64,000 nucleotides of DNA. Origin: Tabrizicola sp. (lineage in GTDB: Bacteria > Pseudomonadota > Alphaproteobacteria > Rhodobacterales > Rhodobacteraceae). Location of the stretch: the NCBI RefSeq assembly GCF_016793705.1, contig NZ_JAEULO010000068.1, positions 1 through 64,000 of the forward strand, in the 5' to 3' direction. Made by a program: the position numbers and the translations under genes. Every line of letters starts with the position of its first letter. The first letter of the stretch is position 1. Below are positions 726 through 23,820 of the stretch, piece after piece. Under the pieces are notes generated by a model. The model was not told the origin of the DNA. It saw only the letters and a list, made by a program, of their open reading frames with translations, and did not search any database.

Positions 726-1214
726 ATGAGCCAATCCCGTCTCAATCTGATCGCCGGTTGCTGCGCCCAGGGGATGAAGAAGGTCCAGCTGGAGATGGGT
801 GGCAAGAACCCGATGGTGGTCACGGCCAGGGCGGACATCGATCTCGCGGTCGGGGTCTGCCTGAACGGAAACTTCTTCTCGACCGGGCAGCGCTGCACCG
901 CCTCGTCTCGACGGATCGTCGACGAGCGGGTCCAGCCGGAATTCACCGACAGGCTTGTCGCAGCGATGGGCACGCTGCGGATCGGCGACCCGCTGGACCC
1001 GGTTACGCAGATTGATCCGGTGGTTTCGGAAGTGCGGCTTTCGGGCAATCTGGACTATGTCCGGCTGGCGGGAGAGGAGGGATGCGAGGTCATCGGCGGG
1101 CGACACCTGAACCGCCCCGGCAGCTTCCAGGCGCCTGCCCTGTTTCTGGGGGCGCGCAACGATTTGCGCGTCGCGCGCGAGGAAAGACGGCCTGCACGTT
1201 CGCGGGACAGGTGA
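726..1214 (+). pseudogene. Aldehyde dehydrogenase remnant (truncated both ends)
   Basis: From about 741 the frame encodes the middle of an NAD(P)-dependent aldehyde dehydrogenase. It contains the general-base glutamate motif LEMGGKNP and, further on, the nucleophile motif TGQRCTASSR, followed by typical GDPLDP spacing. The nucleotide-binding N-terminal half (roughly 250 residues) is absent. After the REE that normally precedes FGP the similarity stops and the frame ends at a TGA overlapping the next gene's ATG (TGATG). The closest type by eye is the alpha-ketoglutarate semialdehyde dehydrogenase group. It cannot make an active enzyme and looks like the scar of a deletion at the edge of the catabolic island. 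Confidence 0.75.
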
Positions 1215-2608
1215 TGGAAGATTTCGCCTTTCTGGGCCCGAAGGGCTGGCTGACGGGGACGGATGCGCTGCCGTATCAGCGGGATTGGCTGAACCGCTAT
1301 GGCACAGCCCCTATCGGGGTGGCGCGCCCGGTCTCGACCGCCGAGGTCGCGCGAGTCATCGCGCTGGCACGAGCACATGGCCTGGCAGTGGTGCCTCAGG
1401 GCGGGAACACCGGGCTTTGCGGGGCGGCGGTGACAGAGGGCCGGGCGCTGATCCTGTCGCTGAACCGGATGGCGGCGATTGGGGCGGTCGATCTGGACGG
1501 CGGCGCGGTCGAGGTCGAGGCCGGGCTGGTGCTGGCCGACCTGCACGCACGGCTCGAAGGGTCAGGGCTGGTGTTTCCGTTGCATCTGGGGGCCGAAGGC
1601 TCGGCGCGGATCGGTGGGCTGATCGCCACCAACGCCGGGGGCTCGCAAGCCTTCCGCCACGGCACGATGGCCGATCTGGTGCTGGGGCTTCAGGTGGTGC
1701 TGCCTGACGGTACGATCTGGGACGGCAGGCGCGCGGTGCAGAAGGACAATGCGGGCTATGCGCTGCGGCGGCTCTTCGCCGGGTCAGAGGGGACGCTGGG
1801 CGTCATCACCCGCGCCGTCCTGCGGCTTGCCCCGGCGCCGCGCGACGAAGCGACGGCGCTGCTGGCGCTGCCTGACGCCGAGGCGCTGGTCGCCTTCGGT
1901 CGCCATCTGCGCGCGACGGCGGGCGAGTTCCTTGCCGCCGCCGAGTTCCTTTCCGATCAGGGCCTGGACTGGGTGTTGAAGCACCTGGCGCTGGACTGGC
2001 CGCTGGACAGCCGCGCGCCCTTCTATCTGCTCGTCGCGCTTTCCACGACCTCGGCGCAGGTCGCGCTGGACGACATCTTTGCCGAGGCGCTGGAGACCGG
2101 GATGGCGCAGGGGCTGGTGCTGGACGGGGCGATTGCCGCCTCGCTGGCGCAGCGGGCGGCCTTCTGGCGCCTGCGCGAAGAGCAGCCCGAGGGGCAGCGT
2201 CTGGAAGGTGTGCAGATCAAGCACGACATCTCGGTGCCGGTGGCGCGCATCCCGGACTTCCTGGCCCAAGGCGCGGCGCTCTGTGCGGCGCATCAGGCGG
2301 GCATCCGGATCAACCCGTTCGGCCATCTGGGCGACGGGAACATCCACTACAACATCTCGCCGCCGGAGGGCGCGGGCTTTGCGGGCGACATCGGCCAGCT
2401 CAGCCTGCACCTTTGCGCGCTGGCGCAGGACATGGGCGGCTCCTTCGCGGCTGAACACGGGCTGGGACGATCCAAGGTGGCGCTGGCCGACCGGCTTCGC
2501 AGCCCCGTAGAGCGGCGGTTGATGGCCGGGATCAAGGCAGCGCTGGACCCGGAAGCCCTGTTCAATCCGGGCGTGATCCTGCGCGATGCGAAAGAAAAAC
2601 TTTCCTGA
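1214..2608 (+). CDS. FAD-linked D-2-hydroxyacid dehydrogenase/oxidase (GlcD/D2HGDH type)
   Basis: A 464-residue member of the FAD-binding PCMH/VAO family that oxidises 2-hydroxyacids to 2-oxoacids. The N-terminal FAD domain carries the pyrophosphate loop PQGGNTGLCG at residues 61-70. The C-terminal FAD-oxidase domain has the metal-binding motifs GHLGDGNIHYN and AEHGLGRSK and the closing FNPGVIL typical of D-2-hydroxyglutarate and D-lactate dehydrogenases. Length is normal. The ATG at 1214 is chosen because the family homology begins there; upstream codons in frame belong to the neighbouring remnant in another frame. It ends 89 bp before the ThDP enzyme gene and probably feeds the same pathway. 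Exact substrate (D-lactate, glycolate, D-2-hydroxyglutarate or a sugar-acid relative) is not readable. Confidence 0.85.
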   Translation: MEDFAFLGPKGWLTGTDALPYQRDWLNRYGTAPIGVARPVSTAEVARVIALARAHGLAVVPQGGNTGLCGAAVTEGRALILSLNRMAAIGAVDLDGGAVEVEAGLVLADLHARLEGSGLVFPLHLGAEGSARIGGLIATNAGGSQAFRHGTMADLVLGLQVVLPDGTIWDGRRAVQKDNAGYALRRLFAGSEGTLGVITRAVLRLAPAPRDEATALLALPDAEALVAFGRHLRATAGEFLAAAEFLSDQGLDWVLKHLALDWPLDSRAPFYLLVALSTTSAQVALDDIFAEALETGMAQGLVLDGAIAASLAQRAAFWRLREEQPEGQRLEGVQIKHDISVPVARIPDFLAQGAALCAAHQAGIRINPFGHLGDGNIHYNISPPEGAGFAGDIGQLSLHLCALAQDMGGSFAAEHGLGRSKVALADRLRSPVERRLMAGIKAALDPEALFNPGVILRDAKEKLS

Positions 2609-2697
2609 AGATCGACGATCTTTGTTTCAGCGGCTTCGGGTTGTCGGCCATACTCTGCAAGGCGCTCGCGGCAGCGCTGGAAGGAAAGAAGACCAAG

Positions 2698-4365
2698 ATG
2701 ACACGAAACGGCGGACAGCTTCTGGTGAAAAGCCTGCTGGCGCTCGGGGCCCGCAAAGGGTTCGGCGTGCCGGGGGAAAGCTATCTTGCGGTGCTGGACG
2801 CCCTGCATGACACGCAAGGTCGGCTCGACTTCGTGAACTGCCGGAACGAGGGTGGGGCGGCCTTCATGGCCGCGGCCTGGGGCAAGCTGACGGGCGAACC
2901 GGGGCTTTGCTTTGTCACACGGGGGCCAGGCGTCACCAATGCCTCGATCGGCATTCACACCGCGATGCAGGATTCGGCGCCGATGATCGTCTTCGTCGGT
3001 CAGGTCGGCACCGACATGAAGGGGCGCGAGGCCTTCCAGGAAATCGACTACCGCGCCGTGTTCGGCACGATGGCGAAATGGGCGGCCGAGATCGATCAGG
3101 TGGACCGCATTCCCGAGATCCTCGCCCGGGCCTGGGTGACGGCCACGACGGGCCGCCCCGGTCCGGTCGTCATCGCTCTTCCCGAGGACATGCTGACCAG
3201 CCCGACCGATGCCGCGCCCCTGACCGGACCGGCACGGATCGCCGAGGCGGCGGCCAAGCCCGAGGCGCTGGAGGACGCGCTGGGGGTACTGGCTGGAGCT
3301 CGGCGCCCGCTGATCCTGATGGGCGGCTGCAACTGGACCGCAGCAGGCCGGATCGCCTTGCAACGCTTTGCCGAGGCCTCAGACATTCCGGTGGTCGCGG
3401 CCTTCCGCTATCAGGACCAGGTGGACAACCACTCCCCCGTCTATGCCGGAGAGGCGGGGGTGGGCATGACCGCCAATGTGAAGCGGCTGATCCGCGAAGC
3501 GGACGTGATCCTTGCGGTCAATGTTCGCTTCGGCGAGATGACAACGGACGGCTACACGCTCCTGTCGGTCCCGGTTCCCTCGCAAAAGTTGATCCATGTG
3601 CATGGGTCGGACCGCGAGATCGGCAAGGTCTATCAACCGACTCTGGGCATCCATGCCGGGCCGAACGCCTTTGCGGCGGCGCTGCGTCCGGTGACCGGCA
3701 AGTGGAGCGCGTGGCGGGCAAAGGCGCGGACAGAATGGGAGGCGGGGTTCGATCTGGGCCCGCTGCCCTCGCCGGTGGACATGGGCGTGGTGACGGCCCA
3801 TCTGCGCGATCTCCTGCCCGAGGACGTGATCCTGACCAACGGGGCGGGCAACTTCACCGTCTGGCCGAACAAGTTCTTCAAGTTTGGCCCCAAGGCCCGG
3901 CTCCTGGCGCCGCAGTCCGGGGCGATGGGCTATGGCCTGCCCGCTGCCGTGGCCGCCAGGATCGCCGATCCCGCGCGGACCGTGGTCTGCTTTGCGGGCG
4001 ACGGCGATTTCCAGATGAACTGTCAGGAACTGGCGACCGCCGCCCAATATGGCGCGCAGCCCATCATCCTGCTCTTGAACAATGGCATCTACGGCACGAT
4101 CCGCGCCCATCAGGAACGCGAGTTTCCCGGCCGCGTATCGGGCACCGACATGATCAACCCGGACTTCGTTGCCCTGGCCCGCGCCTACGGTTTCCATGCC
4201 GAGCGGGTGGAGACCACCGATGCCTTCCCGGCGGCGATGGCGCGCGCTTTGGCCTCGACCACGGGCGCGGTTCTTGAGTTGACCATCTCGCCCGAGGCGC
4301 TGACGCCACGGCAGACCCTTTCGCAGATGCGTGCCGCAGCCCTTTTCAGGAAAGACGCCAAATGA
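2698..4365 (+). CDS. Thiamine-diphosphate-dependent enzyme, acetolactate-synthase-like
   Basis: A 555-residue protein with the three-domain ThDP fold. The N-terminal Pyr domain has the catalytic glutamate in the RNEGGAAF motif (E51), which separates it from glyoxylate carboligase, where that Glu is replaced. The C-terminal PP domain has GDGDFQMN, ending in the NN of LLLNN, the Mg-ThDP signature. Family members decarboxylate 2-oxoacids and often ligate the product to a second carbonyl. ATG 2698 is preferred over an in-frame earlier codon because it follows a GGAAGGAAAG purine tract. It opens a six-gene operon and overlaps hyuA by ATGA. It may act on the oxoacid from the preceding oxidase. Not assignable to ilvB, since no small subunit lies nearby. 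Confidence 0.85.
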   Translation: MTRNGGQLLVKSLLALGARKGFGVPGESYLAVLDALHDTQGRLDFVNCRNEGGAAFMAAAWGKLTGEPGLCFVTRGPGVTNASIGIHTAMQDSAPMIVFVGQVGTDMKGREAFQEIDYRAVFGTMAKWAAEIDQVDRIPEILARAWVTATTGRPGPVVIALPEDMLTSPTDAAPLTGPARIAEAAAKPEALEDALGVLAGARRPLILMGGCNWTAAGRIALQRFAEASDIPVVAAFRYQDQVDNHSPVYAGEAGVGMTANVKRLIREADVILAVNVRFGEMTTDGYTLLSVPVPSQKLIHVHGSDREIGKVYQPTLGIHAGPNAFAAALRPVTGKWSAWRAKARTEWEAGFDLGPLPSPVDMGVVTAHLRDLLPEDVILTNGAGNFTVWPNKFFKFGPKARLLAPQSGAMGYGLPAAVAARIADPARTVVCFAGDGDFQMNCQELATAAQYGAQPIILLLNNGIYGTIRAHQEREFPGRVSGTDMINPDFVALARAYGFHAERVETTDAFPAAMARALASTTGAVLELTISPEALTPRQTLSQMRAAALFRKDAK

Positions 4366-6452
4366 CCCTTTCCATCCGCCTGGGGGCCGATATCGGCGGC
4401 ACCTTCACCGACATTGCGCTGGAAGTCGGCGACCGGATCTTCTCGACCAAGGTCCTGACCAACTATTCGGCCCCCGAACAGGCGATTCTTGACGGGATGG
4501 ATGCCGTCCTGGCCGAGGCAGGGCTTGGCTATGGCGAGCTTCAGATCGTCATCCACGGCACGACGCTGGCCACGAACGCGCTGATCGAACGGCGTGGCGC
4601 GAAGGTGGCTTTCCTCACCACCGAGGGGTTCCGTGACGTGATCGAGATGCGGACCGAAAGCCGGTTCGACCAATACGACCTGAACCTGCGTCTCCCGGCG
4701 CCGCTGGTTCCGCGCGAGGACCGCTTCCCGATCGGCGGCCGGATCGGGGCCTCGGGCGCCGAACTGGCCCCGCTTGACGAAGCCGCGCTGCGGGCGCTGG
4801 TCTCGGTCGTTTCGCAAGGCGGCTACGGGGCTGTGGCCATCGGCTTCATCCATTCCTATCTGAACCCCGACCACGAACGGCGCGCGCGCGATTTCCTGGC
4901 CACCTGCGGGCTACCGATCTCGATCTCGTCCGAGGTCTCGCCGCAGATGCGGGAGTATGAGCGCTTCAACACGGTCTGTGCCAATGCCTATGTCCGGCCG
5001 CAGATGGCGTCATATCTGGATCGGCTTCAGGAGCGGCTGAAAGAGCGGGGCGCACGATGCCCGGTCTTCATGATCCACTCCGGCGGTGGCCTGGTCAGCG
5101 TAGACACCGCTGCCGAGTTCCCGGTCCGGCTGGTGGAATCCGGCCCGGCGGGCGGGGCGATCTTTGCCGCCGACGTCGCCCGTCGTTTCGGGCTGGACAA
5201 GGTCGTGAGCTACGACATGGGTGGCACCACGGCGAAGATCTGCCTGATCGAGGATTACGCGCCGAAGACCGCCCGCAGCTTCGAGGTCGCGCGCACGACG
5301 CGATTTGCCAAGGGGTCGGGGATGCCGATTTCCATCCCGGTGATCGAGATGATCGAGATCGGCGCGGGGGGCGGCTCCCTCGCCTGGGTCGATCCGATGG
5401 GGCGCATCCAGACCGGGCCGGAATCGGCGGCGTCGGAACCGGGACCGGCCTGCTACCAGCGCGGCGGCACGCGGCCCGCGATCACCGACGCCGACCTGAT
5501 CCTGTCGAAGCTCGACCCCGACAATTTCGCGGGCGGAGCGATCAAGCTCTCCACCGCCAACGCGGCTTCAGCCATCGCCGCCCATGTCGGCGACCGTCTG
5601 GGCCTTTCGCCGCAGTCTGCCGCCTTCGGCATCTGCGAGGTGGTGGACGAGAACATGGCCAACGCCGCCCGCGTCCACGCGGTCGAGAACGGCAAGAACA
5701 TCTCGGACAACATCATGGTGGCCTTTGGCGGCGCGGCCCCGCTGCACGCGGCGCGGCTGTGCGAGAAGCTCGGGATCGACCAGTGCCTGGTGCCCCCCGG
5801 CGCAGGCGTTGGTTCGGCCATCGGCTTCCTGAAGGCGCCGTTCGGCTACGAGGCGCTGGCATCGCGGATCATCGGGCTGTCGGCCTTCGATCCGGCGGCG
5901 TTCAACGGGCTGGTCGACGGGCTGAAGGAAACCGCCAGGCGGTTCGTGGCGCAGGGCACTTCCGGCACCATCCTGTGCGAGACGGTCGCCTTCATGCGCT
6001 ATCGCGGCCAGGGCTGGGAGATCCCGGTGCCGCTGCCCGACCGGCCGCTGACGGCGGCGGATGCCGGATTGATCCGCGACAGGTTCCGCACCGCCTATGC
6101 CCGCTTCTTCGGCCGCGCCATCGACGGTCTGGACGGCCAGGGCGCGGGGCTGGAGATCGAGATCGTCACTCTTTCGGTCAAGGCCGCCGACGAACGCTCC
6201 GCGCCGACCCCGGTCACGCTGACGACCGGCACCCGCTCGGCTCCCGCCGCGCAACTGCGTGACGTCTTCGACCCCGCCACTGGGGCCGATTTGCCGACCG
6301 CCATCGTCACGCGCGACAGTCTTGCAGCGGGCGACCGCGTTGCCGGACCGGCGATCGTCGTGGAGCGGGAAACCTCCACTGTCGTCACTTCGCCCTTCGA
6401 CGTGGTCAAACAACCGGACGGCTCGCTGCTGATCCTGCGGAAAGGAGCGTGA
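4362..6452 (+). CDS. Hydantoinase/oxoprolinase subunit A (HyuA family)
   Basis: A 696-residue ATP-dependent subunit of the hydantoinase A/5-oxoprolinase/acetone carboxylase superfamily. The ASKHA nucleotide-binding signature DIGGTFTD is near residue 10. HGTTLATNAL and the ERR segment follow, then VESGPAGGA and YDMGGTTAK of the second nucleotide-binding half. Partners are a B subunit encoded immediately downstream and an upstream gene overlapping by 4 bp. Known relatives open cyclic amides (5-oxoproline, N-methylhydantoin) or carboxylate ketones using ATP. The sequence does not show which applies, but the aminotransferase and amine oxidases in the same operon favour a nitrogenous substrate. 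Confidence 0.9.
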   Translation: MTLSIRLGADIGGTFTDIALEVGDRIFSTKVLTNYSAPEQAILDGMDAVLAEAGLGYGELQIVIHGTTLATNALIERRGAKVAFLTTEGFRDVIEMRTESRFDQYDLNLRLPAPLVPREDRFPIGGRIGASGAELAPLDEAALRALVSVVSQGGYGAVAIGFIHSYLNPDHERRARDFLATCGLPISISSEVSPQMREYERFNTVCANAYVRPQMASYLDRLQERLKERGARCPVFMIHSGGGLVSVDTAAEFPVRLVESGPAGGAIFAADVARRFGLDKVVSYDMGGTTAKICLIEDYAPKTARSFEVARTTRFAKGSGMPISIPVIEMIEIGAGGGSLAWVDPMGRIQTGPESAASEPGPACYQRGGTRPAITDADLILSKLDPDNFAGGAIKLSTANAASAIAAHVGDRLGLSPQSAAFGICEVVDENMANAARVHAVENGKNISDNIMVAFGGAAPLHAARLCEKLGIDQCLVPPGAGVGSAIGFLKAPFGYEALASRIIGLSAFDPAAFNGLVDGLKETARRFVAQGTSGTILCETVAFMRYRGQGWEIPVPLPDRPLTAADAGLIRDRFRTAYARFFGRAIDGLDGQGAGLEIEIVTLSVKAADERSAPTPVTLTTGTRSAPAAQLRDVFDPATGADLPTAIVTRDSLAAGDRVAGPAIVVERETSTVVTSPFDVVKQPDGSLLILRKGA

Positions 6453-6453: not shown

Positions 6454-8064
6454 ATGACCGACCAGACCCAGGAAATCCGGATGCAGGTGATGTGGAACCG
6501 CCTGATCTCGGTCGTCGAGGAACAGGCGATGACGCTCTTGCGCACCGCCTTCTCGACCTCCGTCCGCGAGGCGGGCGATCTATCGGCAGGCGTTTTCGAT
6601 CCGCAGGGCCGGATGCTGGCGCAGGCCGTGACCGGCACCCCGGGACACGTCAACACCATGGCCGAGGCGGTCCTGCACTTCATCGCCGAGATCGGGCGGC
6701 AGAATATGTTCCCCGGCGACACCTATGTGACGAACGATCCCTGGAAGGGCACCGGCCACCTGCACGACATCACCATGGTCTCGCCCAGCTTCAAGGGCGA
6801 CCGGCTCGTCGGCTTCTTCGCCTGCACCGCGCATGTCGTCGATGTGGGGGGCAGGGGCTTCGGGGCCGACGGCAAGTCGGTCTACGAGGAAGGCATCCAG
6901 ATTCCGATCATGAAGTTCGCCGAGCGGGGCGTGGTGAATGCCGACCTGATCCGCATCCTGCGCGCCAACGTGCGCGAGGCGAACCAGGTGGTCGGCGACT
7001 TCTACTCGCTGGCCGCCTGCAATGACGTGGGGCACCAGCGCCTGATCGCGATGATGGAGGAGATCGGCCTGCCGAACCTCAATCAGTTGGGCGACTTCAT
7101 CTTCTCGCGCACCCGTGCCGCCACGCTGGAGCGGATCGCCGCCCTGCCGCGCGGAGCCTGGGTCAATACCATGATCACCGACGGCTATGATCAGCCGGTG
7201 AAGCTGCAAGCGACGGTCGAGACCCGCGACGGCACGGTCAACGTGGACCTGACCGGCACCGACGGCATCAGCCGCTGGGGCATCAACGTACCGATCATCT
7301 ACACCAAGGCCTATGCCTGCTATGCGATGAAATGTGTCGTGGCGCCGGATATCCCGAACAACTGGGCCTCCCTTGAGCCCTTCACCGTCTCGTCGCCAGA
7401 GAACATCCTGAACGCCCCGTTCCCGGCCCCGGTGTCACTGCGCCATGTCTTCGGCCACATGGTCCCCGACCTGGTGCTTGGGGCATTGGCGCAGGCGCTG
7501 CCGGGAAAGATCCTGGCAGAGGGTGCGGGGGCGCTCTGGAACATCCACATGTCGGTGAAGCCCACCACGCCCGGCGGGCAGCGGGCCGAGATCCTGATGT
7601 TCAACTCGGGCGGGATGGGCGCGCGGCCCGAGGCGGACGGACTGTCCGCGACCGCCTTCCCCTCGGGCGTGATGACCATGCCGATCGAGGCGACCGAGCA
7701 CACCGGCCCGGTGGTGATCTGGCGCAAGGAACTGCGGCCCGACTCTGGCGGCGATGGCCAGTATCGCGGTGGGCTGGGCCAGATCATCGAGATCGAACCG
7801 GCGAAGGGCCACATGATGGACTTCTCGGCGATGTTCGACCGGATCGGCCCGGCCCCGCGCGGACGCGACGGCGGGCAGGCCGGGGCGAATGGCGTCGCCA
7901 TGCTGGACGATGGCACGAAGCTGCGTCCGAAGGGCTGGCAGCACCTTCCCGAAGGCCGGCGGCTGGTGTTGCACCTGCCGGGCGGCGGTGGCTATGGCGA
8001 TCCCGAAAACCGCAGCCCGGAGGCACGGGCCGACGATCTCTCGAAAGGCTATGTGACGAAATGA
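6454..8064 (+). CDS. Hydantoinase/oxoprolinase subunit B (HyuB family)
   Basis: A 536-residue B subunit that normally forms a heteromer with HyuA. It shows the conserved EAGDLSAGVFD segment, the GHVNTM and TNDPWKGTGHLHD motifs (metal/active-site region) and a glycine-rich LPGGGGYGDP end, all characteristic. It begins 1 bp after the hyuA stop with a strong AAAGGAG ribosome site at 6441-6447, so the two subunits should be made together. Length is that of the catabolic HyuB proteins rather than the fused 5-oxoprolinase of eukaryotes. Substrate unresolved. Confidence 0.9.
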   Translation: MTDQTQEIRMQVMWNRLISVVEEQAMTLLRTAFSTSVREAGDLSAGVFDPQGRMLAQAVTGTPGHVNTMAEAVLHFIAEIGRQNMFPGDTYVTNDPWKGTGHLHDITMVSPSFKGDRLVGFFACTAHVVDVGGRGFGADGKSVYEEGIQIPIMKFAERGVVNADLIRILRANVREANQVVGDFYSLAACNDVGHQRLIAMMEEIGLPNLNQLGDFIFSRTRAATLERIAALPRGAWVNTMITDGYDQPVKLQATVETRDGTVNVDLTGTDGISRWGINVPIIYTKAYACYAMKCVVAPDIPNNWASLEPFTVSSPENILNAPFPAPVSLRHVFGHMVPDLVLGALAQALPGKILAEGAGALWNIHMSVKPTTPGGQRAEILMFNSGGMGARPEADGLSATAFPSGVMTMPIEATEHTGPVVIWRKELRPDSGGDGQYRGGLGQIIEIEPAKGHMMDFSAMFDRIGPAPRGRDGGQAGANGVAMLDDGTKLRPKGWQHLPEGRRLVLHLPGGGGYGDPENRSPEARADDLSKGYVTK

Positions 8065-11292: not shown

Positions 11293-11297
11293 ATCAC
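11284..11297. other. Perfect 14-bp palindrome shared by two convergent stop codons
   Basis: GTGATCTAGATCAC encodes the last residues and the TAG stop of both convergent oxidase genes. The CTAG centre is the stop on each strand (11290-11292 on plus, 11289-11291 on minus). The two C-termini, both ending AVI, are therefore written by the same double-stranded bases. Confidence 0.9.
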
Positions 11298-16141: not shown

Positions 16142-16885
16142 ATGAAAGACCTCAACATCGTTATCGTCGGCGGCGCGATGGGCTTCGGCGCGCTCATCGC
16201 GGAGATGGCCGTCGAGGCAGGCGCCAGGGGCGTTGGCATCATCGACATCGCCGATGCGACCGATGCCCTGGCCCCCGCCCGCGCCGGGGGGCTGAAGACC
16301 GCGCAGACACTGTGCGACATCCGCACCGCGCCTGCCTGCCAGGCCGCCTTCGACCGGATCGTGGCCGAACTGGGCCGCGTCGACACCCTGGTCAACTGCG
16401 CCGCGATCTATCCGCGCAAGCCGACGCTGGGCGTCACCGACGAGGAATGGGATGCCTCGAACGCGATCAACATCAAGGGCACCTATCACATGATGGTCGC
16501 GGCCATCGCCCATATGAGGACGCTGGATCCGGTGGCCCATGTCCGCGGACGCATCGTCAACATCACCTCGGTCGATGCCTTCAAGGCGCATCCGAAGAAC
16601 ATCCACTACGCCGCCACCAAGGCCGCAGTCGTGAGCCTTACCAAGTCCGTCGCCGACTATGTCGCGCCCGACGGCATCCTGGTCAACTCAGTCGCACCCG
16701 CCGGAATGGCCACCGAGAAGGCCCGGCAGTCGGGCTTCCTGGACGAGCTGGCCAAGGCAAGCCCCTTGGGCCGGGGCGCTCTGCCGCGTGAGATCGCCGA
16801 ATGGGTCATCATGGCCGGCAGCCCGAAGAACACCTACATGACCGGAGAAAACATCATCGTTTCCGGTGGTTACATCTACGCCTGA
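16142..16885 (+). CDS. SDR-family oxidoreductase, atypical cofactor loop
   Basis: A 247-residue SDR with a modified glycine motif (VGGAMGFGA near residue 10 in place of TGxxxGIG). It retains the NCAA motif in TLVNCAAIYP, a catalytic serine in NITSVDAF, and YAATK. C-terminal ENIIVSGGYIYA matches the usual NVDGG closing strand only loosely. It follows the previous SDR by 7 bp in the same direction, and AapJ begins 113 bp later. Activity is probable because the catalytic Ser-Tyr-Lys set is intact. Confidence 0.82.
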   Translation: MKDLNIVIVGGAMGFGALIAEMAVEAGARGVGIIDIADATDALAPARAGGLKTAQTLCDIRTAPACQAAFDRIVAELGRVDTLVNCAAIYPRKPTLGVTDEEWDASNAINIKGTYHMMVAAIAHMRTLDPVAHVRGRIVNITSVDAFKAHPKNIHYAATKAAVVSLTKSVADYVAPDGILVNSVAPAGMATEKARQSGFLDELAKASPLGRGALPREIAEWVIMAGSPKNTYMTGENIIVSGGYIYA

Positions 16886-18111: not shown

Positions 18112-19290
18112 ATGGCAGGATCAACCTTCTGGCGCAGCAAGTCCGTCCGGGGCATCGTCCTCCAGGGCGGCTTCCTGGCGCTGATCGCCGCCGTCGTGAT
18201 CGGTGCCACCCTGACCGCGCGCGACACTCTGGCCGCGCAGGGGCTGACGTCGGGCTTCGGCTTCCTGCGGAAGGCGACAGGATGGGAGATGAACTTTTCC
18301 CTCCTCCCGACGACCACCAGCGATCCCTATTGGTGGTATCTGCTGATGGGCCTCATGAACACGCTCTTCATGGGGCTGGTCGGCTTGACCGGGGCCTCGG
18401 TCCTTGGCCTGATCGTGGGACTCATGCGGTCGGGCCGCAACCCCGCCGCCCGGCTCCTGGGCACGCTCTATATCGAGCTGTTCCGCAACCTGCCGCTGAT
18501 CCTGCAACTCTTCTTCTGGTATGCGATGGCGAATGCGCTGCCTGCGCCCCGCCAGTCGCTGGAAATCGGCGGCGCGCTGGTCAATGCGCGGGGCATTTAT
18601 CTGCCGGGTCTGGCCATCGGGCCGGGAACCGTCGCGCTTGCCCTACTGGCCGTGGCCTCGGGGGCCTGCCTTGCCGTCTGGGTTCTTGCCGCCCGCCGGT
18701 TCCGCCGGATGGAGCCGCAGGGCCAGCGCCGCCTCTCACTGGCCGCGCTGGGCGCCGGACTGGCCCTTGCCGCCGTAACGGTCCTTGCCGGACACGAACC
18801 CGGCACCGCCTGGACCTCCTGGCCCGCGCTCGCAGGGCTGAAGGTCGACGGCGGCTTCCGCATCCAGCCCGAGGTCTATGCCCTGGCCATCGCGATCATG
18901 ACCTATGGCGCCGCCTATGTCGGAGAGATCGTCCGGGGCGGCTTCAAGGCGGTGGGTCGCGGCCAGATGGAAGCCGCCGCCGCCCTGGGCCTGTCGCCGT
19001 GGCAGGTCTTCTCCCGCGTGCGGATGCCGCTCGCCTTCCGCGCCATGCTGCCGATCCTGATCAACCAGTATGTCTGGCTGATCAAGGCTACCACGCTCGG
19101 CATCGCGGTCGGCTTCTCGGATTTCTTCATGGTGATCGCCTCGTCGATCAACCATTCCGGCCAGACCTTCGAATTCATCGCCATCCTGATGGGCGGCTTC
19201 CTTCTGATCAACTTCTCGCTGGCCGCGGTGCTGAACCGTCTGAACCGGGCCATCGCGCTGAAGGGCCATCAGACGACGGGTGTGCAATGA
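18112..19290 (+). CDS. aapQ: Amino-acid ABC transporter permease (AapQ-like)
   Basis: A 392-residue inner-membrane permease. Family features are a long N-terminal segment with one membrane helix, LMGLMNTLFMGLVGL, a long central insertion, and the C-terminal core with the ATPase-contacting EAA loop (GRGQMEAAAALGLSPWQ...). ATG 18112 fits the usual AapQ/BztB N-terminus; an in-frame ATG at 18055 lies inside the intercistronic hairpin. It overlaps aapM by ATGA. Confidence 0.87.
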   Translation: MAGSTFWRSKSVRGIVLQGGFLALIAAVVIGATLTARDTLAAQGLTSGFGFLRKATGWEMNFSLLPTTTSDPYWWYLLMGLMNTLFMGLVGLTGASVLGLIVGLMRSGRNPAARLLGTLYIELFRNLPLILQLFFWYAMANALPAPRQSLEIGGALVNARGIYLPGLAIGPGTVALALLAVASGACLAVWVLAARRFRRMEPQGQRRLSLAALGAGLALAAVTVLAGHEPGTAWTSWPALAGLKVDGGFRIQPEVYALAIAIMTYGAAYVGEIVRGGFKAVGRGQMEAAAALGLSPWQVFSRVRMPLAFRAMLPILINQYVWLIKATTLGIAVGFSDFFMVIASSINHSGQTFEFIAILMGGFLLINFSLAAVLNRLNRAIALKGHQTTGVQ

Positions 19291-20363
19291 CCAGTGCGGC
19301 GCGCTCCAGAACCGGACTCAAGCGCTGGCGCAAGGACTATTTCGGTTCACCCGGTGCCGCGCTGATGACGCTCTTCAGCCTCGCAGCGCTTGGGGCGATC
19401 CTGTGGGTACTGGTCGACTGGGGCCTGATCCGCGCCACCTTTGGCGCCGAGGGCAATCAGGAAACCTGCGCCGCCGGCGGCGGGGCCTGCTGGTCGGTGA
19501 TTGCCGTGCGTTGGCGGGTGATCCTGTTCGGCATCTACCCATTCGAGGAACAGTGGCGCGCAGCCCTCGCCTGCGGCACCGTCGCGCTGGTGATCCTTCT
19601 GTCCTGCATCCCGAGGCTCTGGAGCTTCGGCCGCCTGGCCCTGATCTGGACCTTGGGGACGGCGCTCTTCTACGCGCTTATGCGCGGTGGCGTGCTGGGG
19701 CTGGCGCCAGTCAATGAACAGCAATGGGGCGGGCTGCCGCTGACGCTCTTCGTCTTCGTCGCCACCGGCGTGATCGGGATGCCGCTCGCCATCGGTCTCG
19801 CGCTGCTCAGGCGGTCGGACTATCCGGTCATCGCCCGCGTCTCCGGCTGGATCATCGACACGATCCGTTCGCTCCCCCTGCTCTCGATCCTCTTCACCTG
19901 CGCCATCGTGTTGCCGTTCATGCTGCCGGGCTTCCTGATCGGCGAGAAGCTCTACCGCGTTGTCTTCGGCGCCGCCCTGTTCTTCGCCGCCTATCAGGCC
20001 GAGATCATCCGTGGCGGCTTCCAGGGCATTCCGTCCGGCCAGGAAGAGGCGGCGAAGGCGCTGGGCCTGTCCTACTGGCAGCGCATGGGCCGCATCGTCC
20101 TGCCGCAGGCCTTCCGGCTGGCGCTTCCGGCCACGATCAACCAGTTCGTCATCGCCTTCATGGAAACCTCGCTGATCGTCGTCGTCGGCTTCATGGAACT
20201 GCTGGCGGCGGGTAACACCGCCTTCAAGACCGGCGACTGGAAGTTCGCCTATGCCGAGGTCTACGTCTTCATCGCCGCCATCTACTTCACCTTCGTCTTC
20301 GGCCTGTCGCGCTATGGTGCCTATCTCGAGGCCCGGATGAACACTGGCCACGCCAAGGACTGA
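19287..20363 (+). CDS. aapM: Amino-acid ABC transporter permease (AapM-like)
   Basis: A 358-residue partner permease with several predicted membrane helices and an EAA loop (SGQEEAAKALGLSYWQ) followed by VLPQAFRLALP. The FGSPGAALMT near residue 20 and the central cysteine-containing periplasmic insert are typical of AapM/BztC. It is somewhat shorter than some homologues. It overlaps aapQ by 4 bp and is separated from aapP by 3 bp. Confidence 0.87.
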   Translation: MTSAARSRTGLKRWRKDYFGSPGAALMTLFSLAALGAILWVLVDWGLIRATFGAEGNQETCAAGGGACWSVIAVRWRVILFGIYPFEEQWRAALACGTVALVILLSCIPRLWSFGRLALIWTLGTALFYALMRGGVLGLAPVNEQQWGGLPLTLFVFVATGVIGMPLAIGLALLRRSDYPVIARVSGWIIDTIRSLPLLSILFTCAIVLPFMLPGFLIGEKLYRVVFGAALFFAAYQAEIIRGGFQGIPSGQEEAAKALGLSYWQRMGRIVLPQAFRLALPATINQFVIAFMETSLIVVVGFMELLAAGNTAFKTGDWKFAYAEVYVFIAAIYFTFVFGLSRYGAYLEARMNTGHAKD

Positions 20364-20366
20364 CCC

Positions 20367-21113
20367 ATGGACCTGACCGCCCCCGCCATCGAGATCACGG
20401 GACTCGACAAGTTCTATGGCAGCTTCCACGCCCTGAAGGGCATCGACCTCTGCGTCGCGAAAGGCGAGAAGGTGGTGATCTGCGGCCCTTCGGGCTCGGG
20501 CAAGTCAACCCTCATCCGCTGCATCAACCAGCTTGAGGAACATGACAGCGGCGCGATCCGCGTCTTCGGCACCGCGCTGGACGACAGTCTCGCCTCGCTG
20601 GACGAGATCCGCCGCGAAGTCGGCATGGTCTTCCAGCAGTTCAACCTTTTCCCGCACATGACGGTGCTGGAAAACTGCACGCTGGCGCCGATGCTGGTGC
20701 GCAAGACCGCGCGGGCCGAGGCCGAGGCCATCGCCATGCGCTATCTGGAAAAGGTCCGCATCCCCGATCAGGCGCAGAAATATCCCGGCCAGCTGTCCGG
20801 CGGCCAGCAGCAGCGTGTGGCCATCGCCCGCGCCTTGTGCATGCAGCCCGAAATCCTGCTCTTCGACGAGCCCACCTCGGCGCTCGACCCCGAGATGATC
20901 GCCGAGGTGCTGGATGTCATGGTGACCCTGGCGCAGGAAGGCATGACCATGGTCTGCGTCACGCATGAGATGGGCTTCGCCCGCAAGGTCGCCGACCGGG
21001 TCATCTTCATGGACAAGGGCGAGATCGTCGAGGAGGCCGCGCCCGAGGCCTTCTTCACCGCCCCGAGAAGCGAACGGACACGACTTTTCCTGTCGCAGGT
21101 GCTGGGGCACTGA
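20367..21113 (+). CDS. aapP: Amino-acid ABC transporter ATP-binding protein (AapP-like)
   Basis: A 248-residue ATPase. Walker [10 protein letters not shown] near residue 42, Q-loop in [14 protein letters not shown], signature [15 protein letters not shown], Walker [15 protein letters not shown] and H-loop CVTHEMGFA are all intact. It completes AapJQMP. The [11 protein letters not shown] start is usual for polar amino-acid transporters. Confidence 0.92.
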
Positions 21114-21172
21114 CTTTTGCAGCGGGGGCCGGAATGCTAACGTCGGCGCGCCGACCTGTTCACGGATACCGA

Positions 21173-22078
21173 ATGGCCCCGCGCGTCAAACTGCCGCCCT
21201 TGAACTCTCTGCGCGTGTTCCACGCGGTCGTGCGGCACCGCTCCCTGCGCGAGGCGGCTGACGAATTGCTCGTCTCGCCGCAGGCCATCGGCCAGCAGGT
21301 CCGCCTGCTGGAAGAAGCGCTCGGTGTCGTGCTGATGGAGCGCGACGGTCGCTCGATCCGCTTCACCGAAAAGGCGATCACCCTGTCCCACTACATCCAG
21401 GCCGGGTTCGAGGAGTTCGAGGAAGGCGTCCGCCGGGTGACCGCACCCCGCGAACGCGCCCGGATCAACCTCAACGTCAGCCCCTACTTCGGCACGCGCT
21501 ACCTGATGCCGCGCCTTGCCGAATTCCGGACCGCCGTGCCCGAGGCCGAGATCGGCCTGACCACGATGATCGACCTGGTCGACCTCGAACGCGACCAGAT
21601 CGACCTCGCCGTGCAATGGGGCTACGGCGACCGCAAGGACGCGCTGTCGCATCTCTTGCTGCGTGACCCCAAGGTCGTCTGCTGTCGCCCCGATATGGCC
21701 GAGAAGATCGCGTCGCCGTCCGATCTTCTGCGCTTCAACCTTTTGCAGCCGGCGCGATCCAAGCGCCTCTGGCCCGACATTCTTGCCTTTCTCGGTGTCG
21801 ATATGCCTGAACTGGACCGCAGCCTGACCTTCGATGATGCCGCGACCATGCGGCGCGCGGCGCATCAGGGGCTGGGCATCGGTCTGATCTCGCGGCTGGA
21901 TGCCGAAGAGGATATCGCCGCCGGAAAGCTGATCGCGCCGATCGGAATCGACGCGCTGGCAGAGATGCCGCCGGAAACCGTTCCCGGCTTCTATGTCATC
22001 ACCACGAAAGCACGGCTCAGGGCGCGGCATGTCGCGGCGCTGCACCGTTGGCTTTTGGAACAGGACTGGCAGGCCTGA
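21173..22078 (+). CDS. LysR-family transcriptional regulator (GcvA-like)
   Basis: A 301-residue LysR protein. The N-terminal HTH LNSLRVFHAVVRHRS...EAADELLVSPQAIGQQVR is the GcvA/AmpR-type variant. The C-terminal substrate-binding domain carries ISPYF-like and DLAVQWGYG strands. The ATG at 21173 places the HTH at the usual distance from the start; an in-frame ATG 13 codons upstream is possible. It follows aapP by 59 bp in the same direction and converges with the GarR-like gene. It may control the transporter, but no LysR T-N11-A box was pinned down. Confidence 0.85.
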   Translation: MAPRVKLPPLNSLRVFHAVVRHRSLREAADELLVSPQAIGQQVRLLEEALGVVLMERDGRSIRFTEKAITLSHYIQAGFEEFEEGVRRVTAPRERARINLNVSPYFGTRYLMPRLAEFRTAVPEAEIGLTTMIDLVDLERDQIDLAVQWGYGDRKDALSHLLLRDPKVVCCRPDMAEKIASPSDLLRFNLLQPARSKRLWPDILAFLGVDMPELDRSLTFDDAATMRRAAHQGLGIGLISRLDAEEDIAAGKLIAPIGIDALAEMPPETVPGFYVITTKARLRARHVAALHRWLLEQDWQA

Positions 22079-22096: not shown

Positions 22097-22957
22097 TCAC
22101 CCCAGTCGGTGAGAGGCGAGAGCTTCGAGAGCCTTCACCAGGCTGGAGTGATCCTGTTCGCGATCACAGGCGCTCATCAATTCCTGCGCCGTCGCGGTAT
22201 TGGGCAGTGCGACCCCCAGCGACTTCGCGCTGTCCAGCGCAAGGGTAAGGTCCTTCTGATGCAACTTCAGCCGGAACCCCGGCGCGAAGCTTCGCTTGAT
22301 CATGCGCTCCCCATGTACTTCAAGCACCCGGCTGGCGGCAAATCCTCCCATCAGGGCCTGCCGCACCCGTGCCGGATCGCAACCCGCTTTCGACGCAAAG
22401 ACGAGGGCTTCCGAAACGGCCTCGATGGTCAACGCCACGATGATCTGGTTCGCCAGCTTGCAGGTCTGTCCCGCGCCGGTTGCACCCACCAGGGTGATGT
22501 TCTTTCCCATGATCTGAAACAGCGGCAGCGCCCGGTCGAAATCGGCCTCCGCACCGCCGACCATGATGGTCAGCGTTGCGTTTTCGGCGCCGACCTGTCC
22601 GCCGGACACCGGCGCATCGAGGTAGGAACCACCTTTTTGACCCACCGTATCGGCGAAGCGGCGCGTGGCGATCGGGCTGATCGTGCTCATGTCGATCACC
22701 AGGCTTCCGGGCCGAAGCCCGGCGAGAACGCCCCTGTCCCCCAGAAGGACCCGTTCCACATCCGGCGTGTCGGGCAGCATCAGGATGACGATCTCCGAAG
22801 CCTCCGCCACCTCTGCCGGAGCAGGCAGGACACGGGCTGCAATTCCCTCGGGAAGGGGGGAGCGGTTGAGCGTCGTTGCGATCTCATGCCCCGCGTTTGC
22901 AAGATGCCGGGCCATGGGTGATCCCATTACGCCCAGGCCGATAAAGCCGATCTTCAT
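22097..22957 (-). CDS. garR: NAD(P)-dependent beta-hydroxyacid dehydrogenase (GarR-like tartronate semialdehyde reductase)
   Basis: A 286-residue 3-hydroxyacid dehydrogenase. N-terminal GFIGLGVMGSPMARHL, DAPVSGG substrate loop, GATGAGQTCKLANQ with the catalytic lysine, and a C-terminal LKDL-like LHQKDLTLALD. These are the four signatures of the tartronate-semialdehyde/3-hydroxyisobutyrate dehydrogenase family. A strong GGAGGA lies before the ATG. It is divergent from an HpcH/HpaI aldolase; in the galactarate/glucarate route that pair makes tartronate semialdehyde and reduces it to glycerate, which favours the GarR assignment. 3-Hydroxyisobutyrate dehydrogenase is the alternative. Confidence 0.78.
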   Translation of the reverse strand: MKIGFIGLGVMGSPMARHLANAGHEIATTLNRSPLPEGIAARVLPAPAEVAEASEIVILMLPDTPDVERVLLGDRGVLAGLRPGSLVIDMSTISPIATRRFADTVGQKGGSYLDAPVSGGQVGAENATLTIMVGGAEADFDRALPLFQIMGKNITLVGATGAGQTCKLANQIIVALTIEAVSEALVFASKAGCDPARVRQALMGGFAASRVLEVHGERMIKRSFAPGFRLKLHQKDLTLALDSAKSLGVALPNTATAQELMSACDREQDHSSLVKALEALASHRLG

Positions 22958-22987
22958 CTGTCCTCCGCTTGCGAGCGATAATCATAT

Positions 22988-23004
22988 GATGTATGACAAC
23001 TGAT
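22988..23004. promoter_or_regulatory. Candidate FadR/GntR-type operator O2
   Basis: GATGTATGACAACTGAT in the garR/aldolase divergent promoter matches 14 of 17 positions of the site at 12522-12538. Its core TGTATGACA is a TGT-N3-ACA inverted repeat, close to the FadR-family consensus. It sits 31 bp from the garR start and 19 bp from the aldolase start, where a bound repressor could block both. Confidence 0.6.
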
Positions 23005-23022
23005 AGGTCAAAAGGAACGATC

Positions 23023-23820
23023 ATGCAAGAACGAGAGAATGTCCTGAAGTCGATGGTCGCAGGGGGTCGGGCCGCCATTGGCCTCTGGTGCTCGCTCGGT
23101 TCCGCTCTGACGACCGAGATCGTGGCGGGATCGGGCGCCGACTGGATTCTGATCGACGGCGAGCATAGCCCGAATGATCTGCGGTCCGTCGTGGCCCAAC
23201 TTCAGGCCGCAGCGGCGTTCCGCTGCGAGGCAGCCGTGCGCCTGCCGTCGGATGACCTTAACCTCATCAAACAGTTCATGGACGGCGGGGCCCGCAGCCT
23301 GATGATCCCGAACGTGAAAACCGCCGATCAGGCCCGTGGCATCGTCTCCGCGATGACTTACGCCCCGGGCGGCATCCGTGGCTTCTCTGTCGGCCATCGG
23401 GCGAATGCCTTTGGTCGGATCAAGGGCTACCACGCGAATGCCCGGAACCAGCAGCTTCTGGCCGCCCAGATCGAATGTGCGACCGGGGTGGCCAATGCTG
23501 CCGAGATTGCTGCGGTCGAAGGCGTCGATGTCCTGTTCGTCGGACCGGGCGATCTTTCCGCCAACCTTGGTGTGATGGGCAATCCGTCCGCGCCGCATGT
23601 GCAAGAGGCGATTGCTTCCGTCCTGGCTGCTGCAAAGGCGGCCGGCAAGGCAGCAGGCATACTCGCCCCCAATCCTGCGGATGCAGATCGGTATCTCGCG
23701 GCAGGCTTCACGATGGTGGCGGTTGGCTCCGACCTCGGCCTCCTGGCGCGCGGTTCGGATGACCTCGTGTCGCGTTTCAGAACATGGACGGGCCGCACCC
23801 TGCAAGCGCCCTTGGGATGA
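23023..23820 (+). CDS. HpcH/HpaI-family class II aldolase (GarL-like)
   Basis: A 265-residue metal-dependent aldolase that cleaves 2-keto-3-deoxy acids to pyruvate and an aldehyde. GLWCSLGS at the start, LIDGEHSPND with a metal-region residue, ALR-like AAVRLPS with the catalytic arginine, and the FVGPGDLSANLG motif near the end match the family. ATG 23023 follows AAAAGGA. Divergent from garR with a shared operator, it is probably a 5-keto-4-deoxy-glucarate or 2-keto-3-deoxy-rhamnonate-type aldolase; the pairing favours release of tartronate semialdehyde. Confidence 0.85.
   Translation: MQERENVLKSMVAGGRAAIGLWCSLGSALTTEIVAGSGADWILIDGEHSPNDLRSVVAQLQAAAAFRCEAAVRLPSDDLNLIKQFMDGGARSLMIPNVKTADQARGIVSAMTYAPGGIRGFSVGHRANAFGRIKGYHANARNQQLLAAQIECATGVANAAEIAAVEGVDVLFVGPGDLSANLGVMGNPSAPHVQEAIASVLAAAKAAGKAAGILAPNPADADRYLAAGFTMVAVGSDLGLLARGSDDLVSRFRTWTGRTLQAPLG

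What the first reader, a model, noticed from the sequence alone, without database searches (positions are those of the whole stretch)
1214..23820. Unassigned catabolic island for an amino-acid-like substrate
The region encodes a 2-hydroxyacid oxidase, ThDP enzyme, HyuA/HyuB, aminotransferase, uronate-dehydrogenase-like protein, two DAO-family oxidases, a shikimate-dehydrogenase-like protein, three SDRs, RidA, AapJQMP and a GarR/HpcH pair, with GntR and LysR regulators. The combination of flavin oxidases with RidA suggests imine formation and hydrolysis. HyuAB suggests ring opening or ATP-driven amide cleavage. GarR/HpcH suggests a route ending in glycerate and pyruvate. I know of no described pathway with exactly this set; the substrate is unknown. 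This is my best candidate for an undescribed system.
Basis: partly seen in the sequence, partly recalled or inferred. Interest (0 to 1): 0.75.

Follow-up and report, generated by a model that had tools for sequence, protein, structure and literature searches.

The report
Gene island predicted to eat hydroxypipecolates
A block of about twenty genes, found together in scattered soil, plant and water bacteria, looks like a pathway for eating ring-shaped hydroxylated amino acids (best guess: plant hydroxypipecolic acids) by a nitrogen version of the route used for sugar acids; the substrate is predicted, not tested.

Summary
The gene set is real, at the stated coordinates. One correction: the second DAO oxidase lies on the minus strand, so this is not one operon. 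The set is patchy but kept together. DAO2/HpcH/GarR/SDH-like/SDR/RidA/GntR/Aap recur in Rhodobacterales and Hyphomicrobiales; UDH lies 15-21 kb from DAO2 in 11 of 11 genomes searched, inside a ThDP-HyuAB-AT-UDH block in 7 of 7 read.

Variant loci narrow the chemistry. Some related HyuAB-AT operons end in kdgD (over cut-off). Rhizobial ones carry YdiJ, a D-2-hydroxyglutarate dehydrogenase (over cut-off in the one scanned). The window's GarR is over cut-off for tartronate-semialdehyde reductase.

Best explanation, inferred: a hydroxylated cyclic imino acid, most likely 5-hydroxy- and 4,5-dihydroxypipecolate, is oxidised by DAO to a cyclic imine. The uronate-dehydrogenase homologue turns its hemiaminal into a lactam, HyuAB opens it with ATP, and the aminotransferase gives a 2-oxoadipate. 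That ends as 2-oxoglutarate (ThDP, ALDH, D2HGDH) or as pyruvate plus glycerate (HpcH, GarR).

No enzyme activity was tested. No such pathway appeared in the listings of the open-access library searched.

The parts
750..1184 (+). fragment of an aldehyde dehydrogenase gene, decayed first gene of the operon
   Evidence: tblastn 71% to Paracoccus operon ALDH residues 234-378 of 477; Pfam Aldedh
1214..2608 (+). FAD-linked D-2-hydroxyacid dehydrogenase, D-2-hydroxyglutarate dehydrogenase-like
   Evidence: start
2641..4365 (+). ThDP enzyme, PRK08199 subfamily; predicted 2-oxo acid decarboxylase (start may be 2698)
   Evidence: NF006052 769 bits over cut-off 539
4362..6452 (+). HyuA, predicted ATP-dependent lactam hydrolase subunit
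6454..8064 (+). HyuB, predicted lactam hydrolase subunit
8061..9272 (+). class I aminotransferase (aspartate-aminotransferase family)
9269..10087 (+). uronate dehydrogenase homologue; predicted hemiaminal-to-lactam dehydrogenase
10084..11292 (+). DAO1, FAD-dependent amine oxidase/dehydrogenase
11289..12497 (-). DAO2, FAD-dependent amine oxidase/dehydrogenase, minus strand
12520..12550 (.). operator-like element between DAO2 and the SDH-like gene (tentative)
   Evidence: second-best matrix score in the 64 kb window; not distinct by a simple consensus
12569..13381 (+). shikimate-dehydrogenase-like oxidoreductase (ORF opens at 12527)
13374..14156 (+). SDR1
14153..14494 (+). RidA-family protein
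14526..15278 (+). GntR/FadR-type regulator
15430..16134 (+). SDR2
16142..16885 (+). SDR3
16999..18030 (+). AapJ-type solute-binding protein
18112..19290 (+). AapQ-type permease
19287..20363 (+). AapM-type permease
20367..21113 (+). AapP-type ATPase
21134..22078 (+). LysR regulator (GcvA-like)
22097..22957 (-). GarR, tartronate semialdehyde reductase
   Evidence: TIGR01505 376 bits over cut-off 341
22979..23009 (.). operator-like element between GarR and HpcH (tentative)
   Evidence: best matrix score in the 64 kb window; not among the eight best by a simple consensus
22993..23820 (+). HpcH/HpaI-family aldolase (start may be 23023)

Best explanation
A catabolic island for hydroxylated cyclic imino acids of the pipecolate type, working as a nitrogen analogue of the oxidative uronate pathway. 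(1) AapJQMP imports the substrate. (2) DAO1 or DAO2 oxidises the ring C-N bond to a cyclic imine; RidA may help handle imines; SDRs and the SDH-like enzyme interconvert or epimerise ring hydroxyls. (3) The hydrated imine is a cyclic hemiaminal with a carboxylate on the other side of the ring nitrogen, shaped like a hexuronate pyranose; the uronate-dehydrogenase homologue oxidises it with NAD+ to a delta-lactam. (4) A lactam does not open by itself, so HyuAB opens it with ATP to a 2-amino-(hydroxy)adipate. (5) The aminotransferase gives the 2-oxo acid. (6a) From 5-hydroxypipecolate: 2-oxo-5-hydroxyadipate, decarboxylated by the ThDP enzyme, oxidised by ALDH to 2-hydroxyglutarate and by the GlcD/YdiJ-type dehydrogenase to 2-oxoglutarate. 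(6b) From 4,5-dihydroxypipecolate: 2-oxo-4,5-dihydroxyadipate, which is 5-keto-4-deoxyglucarate, cleaved by HpcH to pyruvate and tartronate semialdehyde, which GarR reduces to glycerate. Shown here: families, synteny, conservation, residues, variant endings. Inferred: every reaction, the stereochemistry and the substrate.
For: Variant endings within one HyuA clade (47 rows, SH-aLRT 100): kdgD over the equivalog cut-off (413 vs 374) plus an ALDH nearest alpha-ketoglutarate semialdehyde dehydrogenase in S. meliloti, same layout in Ensifer; GarR and HpcH here. KdgD and GarL/GarR consume the same 5-keto-4-deoxyglucarate (pathway knowledge). YdiJ over cut-off (1489 vs 1350) beside HyuAB-AT-UDH-DAO-ThDP in Pararhizobium; P0019 nearer D2HGDH than D-lactate or glycolate enzymes. 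A Mesorhizobium plasmid has DAO, UDH, HyuAB and kdgD with a threonine-dehydratase-like enzyme, as expected if the ring also carries a 3-hydroxyl. UDH catalytic Ser/Tyr/Lys, His and Arg kept in 41 of 41, while the sugar-contacting Asn is Val/Ile in 37 of 41. HyuA nearest lactam/hydantoin hydrolases. A P5C-reductase-family gene stands near two of the loci read, L120 and L193. Gene order GlcD-ThDP-HyuAB-AT-UDH-DAO1 is nearly the reverse of the pathway. 5-Hydroxy-, 4,5-dihydroxy- and trihydroxypipecolic acids are plant products known from legumes (PMC12299671, PMC6271146 passages), and many carriers are rhizobia.
Against: No activity data. I know of no precedent for a UDH acting on a hemiaminal. 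ALDH and HpcH hits are below equivalog cut-offs; HyuA and HyuB are far below the caprolactamase cut-offs. kdgD is common without HyuAB: three other kdgD loci read had none. The S. meliloti, Ensifer and Agrobacterium kdgD variants lack DAO and UDH in the stretch read, so the whole sequence is not always present. In the HyuA-anchored count HpcH was within 9 kb in 0 of 28 and GarR in 2 of 28. Four UDHs (L103, L105, L106, L108) keep the Asn. Six of eight rows of a sister subgroup inside the HyuA clade show no UDH or DAO in the stretch read (L125, L134, L136, L138, L139, L140), as do a few DAO2-family loci (L101, L116). SDH-like, SDR1-3 and the need for two DAOs are only loosely explained. The window's own ALDH is a fragment; an intact 56% relative lies elsewhere. 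Some carriers are aquatic or skin isolates. The DAO2 structure model was too poor to use (pLDDT 56).
Confidence: 0.45

Rival explanations
1. Substrate is a five-ring hydroxylated imino acid (hydroxyproline or dihydroxyproline type); HyuAB is a 5-oxoprolinase-like enzyme and HpcH cleaves 4-hydroxy-2-oxoglutarate to pyruvate and glyoxylate.
For: DAO2's best solved relative is 1y56_B, labelled sarcosine oxidase and recalled as a proline dehydrogenase subunit; HyuA matches 5-oxoprolinase (318 bits); the HpcH family accepts such acids; a P5C-reductase family gene near two loci.
Against: kdgD, tartronate-semialdehyde-type GarR and D2HGDH endings fit C6 skeletons better; known UDH substrates are six-membered rings; no hydroxyproline epimerase or deaminase recurs in the annotations read.
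Confidence: 0.15
2. Substrate is an amino sugar acid (for example a 2-amino-2-deoxyhexuronate): UDH oxidises C1 to an amino-aldarate and PLP enzymes remove nitrogen to give 5-keto-4-deoxyglucarate.
For: Explains UDH, the AT or threonine-dehydratase-like step, kdgD, HpcH and GarR.
Against: Leaves the DAO oxidases, RidA and ATP-dependent HyuAB without a clear task; UDH has lost the sugar-contacting Asn in 37 of 41.
Confidence: 0.15
3. Substrate is an opine- or Amadori-type N-substituted amino acid split by the DAO enzymes; the rest degrades the released pieces.
For: The DAO family contains opine, sarcosine and amadoriase-type enzymes (partly recalled); fructosyl peptide oxidases appear among weak hits; polar amino acid importers; rhizobial carriers.
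Against: No deglycase or opine-specific partner recurs in the annotations read (an FGGY kinase touches the edge of L120 only); does not explain UDH plus HyuAB plus AT as a recurring block.
Confidence: 0.1
4. 5-Hydroxylysine (or another hydroxylated lysine) is the real food and enters as the cyclic imine after oxidation of its amine.
For: Same ring intermediate and same endings; two plasmid carriers come from skin swabs, where collagen is at hand.
Against: The DAO family here resembles secondary-amine oxidases; no lysine oxidase recurs, and the racemase genes seen (L121, L122, L126, L128) are annotated for alanine or Asp/Glu.
Confidence: 0.1
5. Two unrelated modules that happen to be neighbours, each on its own known substrate.
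For: Rhizobial loci show only the HyuAB-UDH half in the stretch read; separate GntR and LysR regulators; no operator-like site at the GlcD promoter among the ten best.
Against: Both halves lie near each other in Paracoccus, Mesorhizobium, Labrys, Bosea, Ancylobacter, Aureimonas and Roseovarius in different gene orders, so linkage is kept despite rearrangement.
Confidence: 0.05

Closest known systems
Oxidative uronate pathway (UDH, aldarolactone opening, KdgD or GarL/GarR, KGSADH)
   Same: UDH homologue, 5-keto-4-deoxyglucarate-type ending, KdgD plus KGSADH-like ALDH in relatives, GarR and HpcH here
   Different: No lactonase, cycloisomerase or aldarate dehydratase in the island; instead DAO, HyuAB and an aminotransferase; compare Thioclava L209, where kdgD sits with TRAP, amidohydrolase and mandelate-racemase-family genes
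Pipecolate to 2-aminoadipate to D-2-hydroxyglutarate catabolism of Pseudomonas (recalled)
   Same: DAO-family amine oxidation to a cyclic imine, aminoadipate-type transamination, D-2-hydroxyglutarate dehydrogenase
   Different: The ring intermediate is, as predicted, oxidised by UDH to a lactam and opened by HyuAB rather than oxidised by an ALDH; ThDP decarboxylase instead of HglS
ATP-dependent lactamases: caprolactamase CapAB, 5-oxoprolinase, N-methylhydantoinase
   Same: HyuA and HyuB subunits, closest characterised families
   Different: Far below the curated cut-offs; recurring partnership with UDH, DAO and AT
UdhOg of Oceanicola granulosus (PMC4476818, section 9 and passages)
   Same: Loss of the substrate-contacting Asn and, in 23 of 41 of our UDHs, the same Gly to Phe change; it is a poor uronate dehydrogenase whose natural substrate its authors call undetermined
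   Different: Its sequence and neighbourhood were not examined here; kinship to this clade is not tested

Membership tests
Oxidative uronate pathway | uronate dehydrogenase with catalytic Ser/Tyr/Lys and carboxylate-binding Arg | tested here: met
   41 of 41 locus UDHs keep them; residue roles partly recalled
Oxidative uronate pathway | sugar-contacting Asn of UDH | tested here: not met
   Val in the window; Val/Ile in 37 of 41, Asn in 4
Oxidative uronate pathway | lactonase, cycloisomerase or aldarate dehydratase | tested here: inconclusive
   none among the genes scanned between 1 and 31.6 kb; the rest of the window and the genome were not searched for them
Oxidative uronate pathway | KdgD or GarL/GarR ending | tested here: inconclusive
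   GarR over cut-off, HpcH below the GarL cut-off; kdgD only in relatives
Pipecolate / D-lysine catabolism | piperideine-6-carboxylate dehydrogenase (ALDH) | tested here: not met
   the island's ALDH is a fragment; the operon ALDH of Paracoccus MA scores 502 and 495 against KGSADH-type models and 298 against NF050084
Pipecolate / D-lysine catabolism | D-2-hydroxyglutarate dehydrogenase | tested here: inconclusive
   P0019 nearer D2HGDH than other named enzymes; YdiJ equivalog over cut-off in a relative
Hydantoin/lactam hydrolase (HyuAB, OPLAH, CapAB) | HyuA and HyuB domains in adjacent genes | tested here: met
   Pfam 265 and 482 bits
Hydantoin/lactam hydrolase (HyuAB, OPLAH, CapAB) | ATP-dependent opening of a named lactam | not testable with these tools
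   needs enzyme assay
Secondary-amine oxidase of the DAO family | oxidation of a cyclic secondary amine | not testable with these tools
   nearest solved relatives 1y56_B and sarcosine oxidase subunits; AlphaFold model too poor

The most novel reading that the evidence does not exclude
An aza-uronate pathway: bacteria treat hydroxylated pipecolates (nitrogen isosteres of uronic acids) with the uronate toolkit, using a repurposed uronate dehydrogenase to make a lactam and an ATP-driven HyuAB lactamase in place of a lactonase, and then funnel the product into either 2-oxoglutarate or pyruvate plus glycerate. This would give a function at once to a recurring branch of uronate dehydrogenases, HyuAB enzymes and PRK08199 ThDP enzymes.
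Probability: 0.4. Interest if true: 0.75.

Novelty: new variant of a known kind. Interest (0 to 1): 0.62.

Why it matters
If right, it assigns a substrate class and a reaction order to about ten gene families now annotated only generically that recur together in rhizobia, Paracoccus and relatives. It would explain how such bacteria consume hydroxypipecolic acids, which legumes make and which mimic sugars. It also offers a natural substrate class for uronate-dehydrogenase homologues that have lost a sugar contact. The prediction is sharp: a handful of known compounds, five to nine enzymes, and measurable products.

Tried and rejected
Literature, open-licence library only: hydantoinase with shikimate dehydrogenase, DAO and uronate dehydrogenase (0 papers); hydantoinase with kdgD (0 papers). 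Searches on hydroxypipecolic acid with catabolism (20 of 78 listed), 5-hydroxypipecolic acid with bacteria (13 of 13), hydantoinase/S. meliloti/kdgD (12 of 17), R. leguminosarum rhizosphere hydantoinase (4 of 4), iminosugar catabolism (5 of 5) and di-/trihydroxypipecolic or hydroxypipecolate (19 of 19) showed no paper on this pathway in titles and abstract beginnings. Of these I opened only PMC12299671 and PMC6271146, passages only. One search found the UDH papers; PMC4476818 was read in section 9 and passages, PMC5442039 in two passages without use.

Rejected or weakened: a glycolate/glyoxylate carboligase reading (the ThDP enzyme is PRK08199 and by eye keeps the usual ThDP glutamate; the FAD enzyme is nearer D2HGDH); hydantoin, N-methylhydantoin and creatinine degradation (none of their known partner enzymes in the island); a plain hexuronate pathway (DAO and HyuAB unexplained, no lactonase or dehydratase in the island).

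Weak tests: the DAO2 AlphaFold model (21 sequences, pLDDT 55.8) was not searched for folds. The alignment of P0006, P0005 and P0011 joins unrelated proteins and was not used. The operator found as a gapped palindrome in 50 intergenic gaps puts the two divergent promoters first and second in the window (6.1 and 1.9, next -12.0) with a 31-column matrix, but its training sites are close relatives of each other, a 1.07 Mb null of other loci also held 6.7 and 4.0, and with a symmetric 14-base consensus the DAO2-SDH site (11 matches) was reached or passed in 35 of 100 Markov draws and the GarR-HpcH site was not among the eight best. Shared regulation is suggestive only. HyuA relatives without the partners in the stretch read: L125, L130, L195; in L128 HyuAB sits with another aminotransferase and a racemase. 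One of the two comparison UDHs (L200) shows Met where the catalytic Lys is expected, so it may not be a sound control.


Full report
WHAT IS THERE. On the plus strand: D-2-hydroxyacid dehydrogenase, ThDP enzyme, HyuA, HyuB, aminotransferase (AT), uronate-dehydrogenase homologue (UDH), DAO1; then DAO2 on the minus strand; then SDH-like, SDR1, RidA, GntR, SDR2, SDR3, AapJ, Q, M, P, LysR; then GarR on the minus strand and HpcH on the plus strand. ThDP/HyuA, HyuB/AT, AT/UDH and UDH/DAO1 overlap by four bases, as in a single transcript. DAO2 was missed in the first Pfam pass because the longer ORF there is antisense. A fragment of an aldehyde dehydrogenase (750-1184) precedes the first gene; in Paracoccus an intact ALDH stands in that place. 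The window's genome keeps a 56% identical intact relative on another contig.

IS THE SET CONSERVED. A scan of one genome for each of 84,980 species for DAO2 gave 80 kept loci of 89 relatives; 40 of the 80 are named Mesorhizobium. Of the 57 loci of at least 21 kb, SDH-like is found in 51, SDR1 in 51, GntR in 51, SDR2 in 51, SDR3 in 52, HpcH in 47, GarR in 38, RidA in 44 and AapJ in 48, but HyuA in only 15 and UDH in 14 within 10 kb; L101 and L116 have none of the partners counted except a DAO itself. The loci end too soon to show the rest: a search of the genomes behind 11 of these loci and of one plasmid record found UDH in 12 of 12 (67-79% in the 11 genomes, 55% in the plasmid); a thirteenth, L101, was not held and not searched. 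By coordinates UDH lies 15-21 kb from DAO2 in the 11, taking the contigs to be the same. Seven of the 11 were read out: ThDP, HyuA, HyuB, AT and UDH lie side by side in 7 of 7, with the GlcD-type gene in 5 of 7. Carriers of both halves include Mesorhizobium, Paracoccus, Bosea, Labrys, Ancylobacter, Aureimonas and Roseovarius; in Rhizobium, Shinella, Pararhizobium and Burkholderiaceae the stretches read show HyuAB, UDH and DAO without HpcH. Gene orders differ while the set stays together.

PATCHINESS. Within the window's family, 285 of 295 genomes have some SDH-family match, as expected for aroE, but only 3 besides the window's own have one of 69-71% identity; these 3 sit with SDR1 and GntR, and DAO2 or RidA where the stretch reaches. 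The one same-genus genome sampled lacks it. Of 387 genomes of the class, 226 have a HyuA match at E <= 1e-60, but only 3 besides the window's own are above 70% identical. The island is an accessory trait.

CONTROL. From the listed HyuA matches I chose 60 regions of up to 20 kb. Pooling all held loci with at least 6 kb on each side, HyuA at least 57% identical (n = 28) has within 9 kb UDH in 20, AT in 19, ThDP in 16, DAO in 15, a D2HGDH-type gene in 12, ALDH in 9, KdgD in 4, GarR in 2 and HpcH in 0. HyuA below 57% (n = 50) has UDH in 1, AT in 1, ThDP in 1, DAO in 3, RidA in 1, GntR in 1, and none of D2HGDH, ALDH, KdgD, HpcH or GarR. The first set is biased: many loci were chosen as plasmid hits and several are close relatives. 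The one low-identity locus with UDH is a Klebsiella plasmid locus (L122, 55%) that falls inside the clade in the tree. A quick HyuA tree of 101 rows (10 of the 80 DAO2 loci were let in) puts the rows whose locus holds UDH or kdgD in one 47-row clade, SH-aLRT 100; the four kdgD rows fall in a six-row subclade (98) with L122 and L199, and the label needs three changes. Against the reading: of eight rows in a sister subgroup of that clade only two (L135, L137) show UDH and DAO; two of the other six regions are short.

WHAT THE VARIANTS SAY ABOUT CHEMISTRY. In S. meliloti (L123) and Ensifer (L194), RidA, an amino-acid ABC importer, HyuA, HyuB and AT are followed by kdgD and an ALDH; Agrobacterium (L124) has the same without the ALDH. 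The S. meliloti KdgD passes the equivalog cut-off (412.6 vs 373.95); its ALDH is nearest alpha-ketoglutaric semialdehyde dehydrogenase but below that cut-off (544.7 vs 770). In a Mesorhizobium plasmid (L126) DAO, UDH, HyuAB, kdgD and GarR stand with a threonine-dehydratase-like enzyme. In Pararhizobium (L129) HyuAB-AT-UDH-DAO-ThDP stands with YdiJ, over the cut-off of D-2-hydroxyglutarate dehydrogenase (1488.8 vs 1350). In the window, GarR is over the cut-off for tartronate semialdehyde reductase (376.2 vs 340.75) and HpcH is below all equivalog cut-offs listed. kdgD is not tied to HyuAB in general: 333 plasmid records hold a relative at E <= 1e-60, and three such loci read (Thioclava, Pseudosulfitobacter, S. 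meliloti) have no HyuAB; it speaks only for the ending. From pathway knowledge, KdgD and GarL/GarR both consume 5-keto-4-deoxyglucarate. So the transaminated product after HyuAB is most simply 2-oxo-4,5-dihydroxyadipate, and in the ThDP/D2HGDH variant 2-oxo-5-hydroxyadipate. The amino acids before transamination are then 2-amino-hydroxyadipates, their lactams hydroxy-6-oxopipecolates, and the cyclic amines before those hydroxypipecolates. This chain is inference; each family assignment is a tool result.

THE UDH STEP. The window protein matches solved uronate dehydrogenases at 231-263 bits. Over 41 locus UDHs the positions of the catalytic Ser, Tyr and Lys, the His, Ser165 and the Arg that binds the carboxylate are invariant, whereas the substrate-contacting Asn is Val in 35, Ile in 2 and Asn in 4, and Gly163 is Phe in 23, Gly in 15, Tyr in 1 and Leu in 2; two UDHs from elsewhere keep Asn and Gly, but one of them lacks the Lys. 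The roles of Tyr136, Lys140, Ser165 and Arg174 are recalled from the A. tumefaciens enzyme; those of Ser110, Asn111, His112 and Gly163 come from PMC4476818 (section 9 and passages). That paper reports that UdhOg, with Ile for the Asn and Phe for the Gly, has the largest Km and lowest kcat of five enzymes on glucuronate and galacturonate, and perhaps another natural substrate. A hydrated hydroxypiperideine-carboxylate has the ring heteroatom, the C-OH and the carboxylate in the same places as a hexuronate; a trihydroxypipecolic acid from Baphia is described as a glucosidase inhibitor in the text of PMC6271146 and as a glucuronidase inhibitor in the title of the work it cites (passages).

ECOLOGY. 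[quoted passage not shown] PMC6271146 (passages) names Calliandra pittieri for 4-hydroxypipecolic acid and Julbernardia for the 4,5-dihydroxy acid. Many carriers are rhizobia, and the record of one names Calliandra calothyrsus as its source (L191). Aquatic and skin isolates also carry the island, so the source there may differ.

REGULATION. Scanning intergenic gaps of 80 loci for gapped palindromes gave TATGAT-N7-ATCATA in 50 gaps: 40 of 51 GarR/HpcH gaps and 10 of 11 SDH/HpcH gaps. A matrix from 51 such sites ranks the GarR-HpcH gap (22979) and the DAO2-SDH gap (12520) first and second in the 64 kb window, far above the third. A 1.07 Mb null had two scores in the same range, and a simple consensus gave no separation from shuffles. 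I take this as a hint that these two promoters share a regulator, perhaps the GntR protein. No such site was among the ten best at the GlcD-ThDP half.

VERDICT. The island is real, patchy in distribution, but kept together where it occurs. It is most likely a pathway for hydroxylated pipecolate-type imino acids by lactam formation and ATP-driven lactam opening. I put 0.45 on that mechanism. No paper describing it appeared in the searches listed in Tried and rejected, but the library is open-licence only and two listings were cut.

Noticed in passing
window 65-141, 210-244, 369-383: tRNA-Met (CAT) followed by two degraded partial copies of its sequence (77% over 35 bases; 87% over 15 bases, which may be chance), as could be left by integration at a tRNA gene.
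   Followed up: partly
window 750-1184: Fragment of an aldehyde dehydrogenase gene, 71% identical to the ALDH that opens the same operon in Paracoccus.
   Followed up: yes
L122: A conjugative Klebsiella pneumoniae plasmid carries DAO-UDH-HyuAB-alanine-racemase-like-RidA-amino-acid importer, a relative of this system in Enterobacterales.
   Followed up: partly
L095, L046, L112, L118, L119, L191, L193: Electron-transfer flavoprotein genes stand near several of these loci, suggesting that the flavin enzymes pass electrons to ETF.
   Followed up: no
L202: The aminotransferase of this Mesorhizobium locus appears as two adjacent matches, perhaps split or duplicated.
   Followed up: no
window 24055-24669: DUF1287 protein (228 bits) directly after HpcH, of unknown function; whether it recurs beside the set was not tested.
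   Followed up: no
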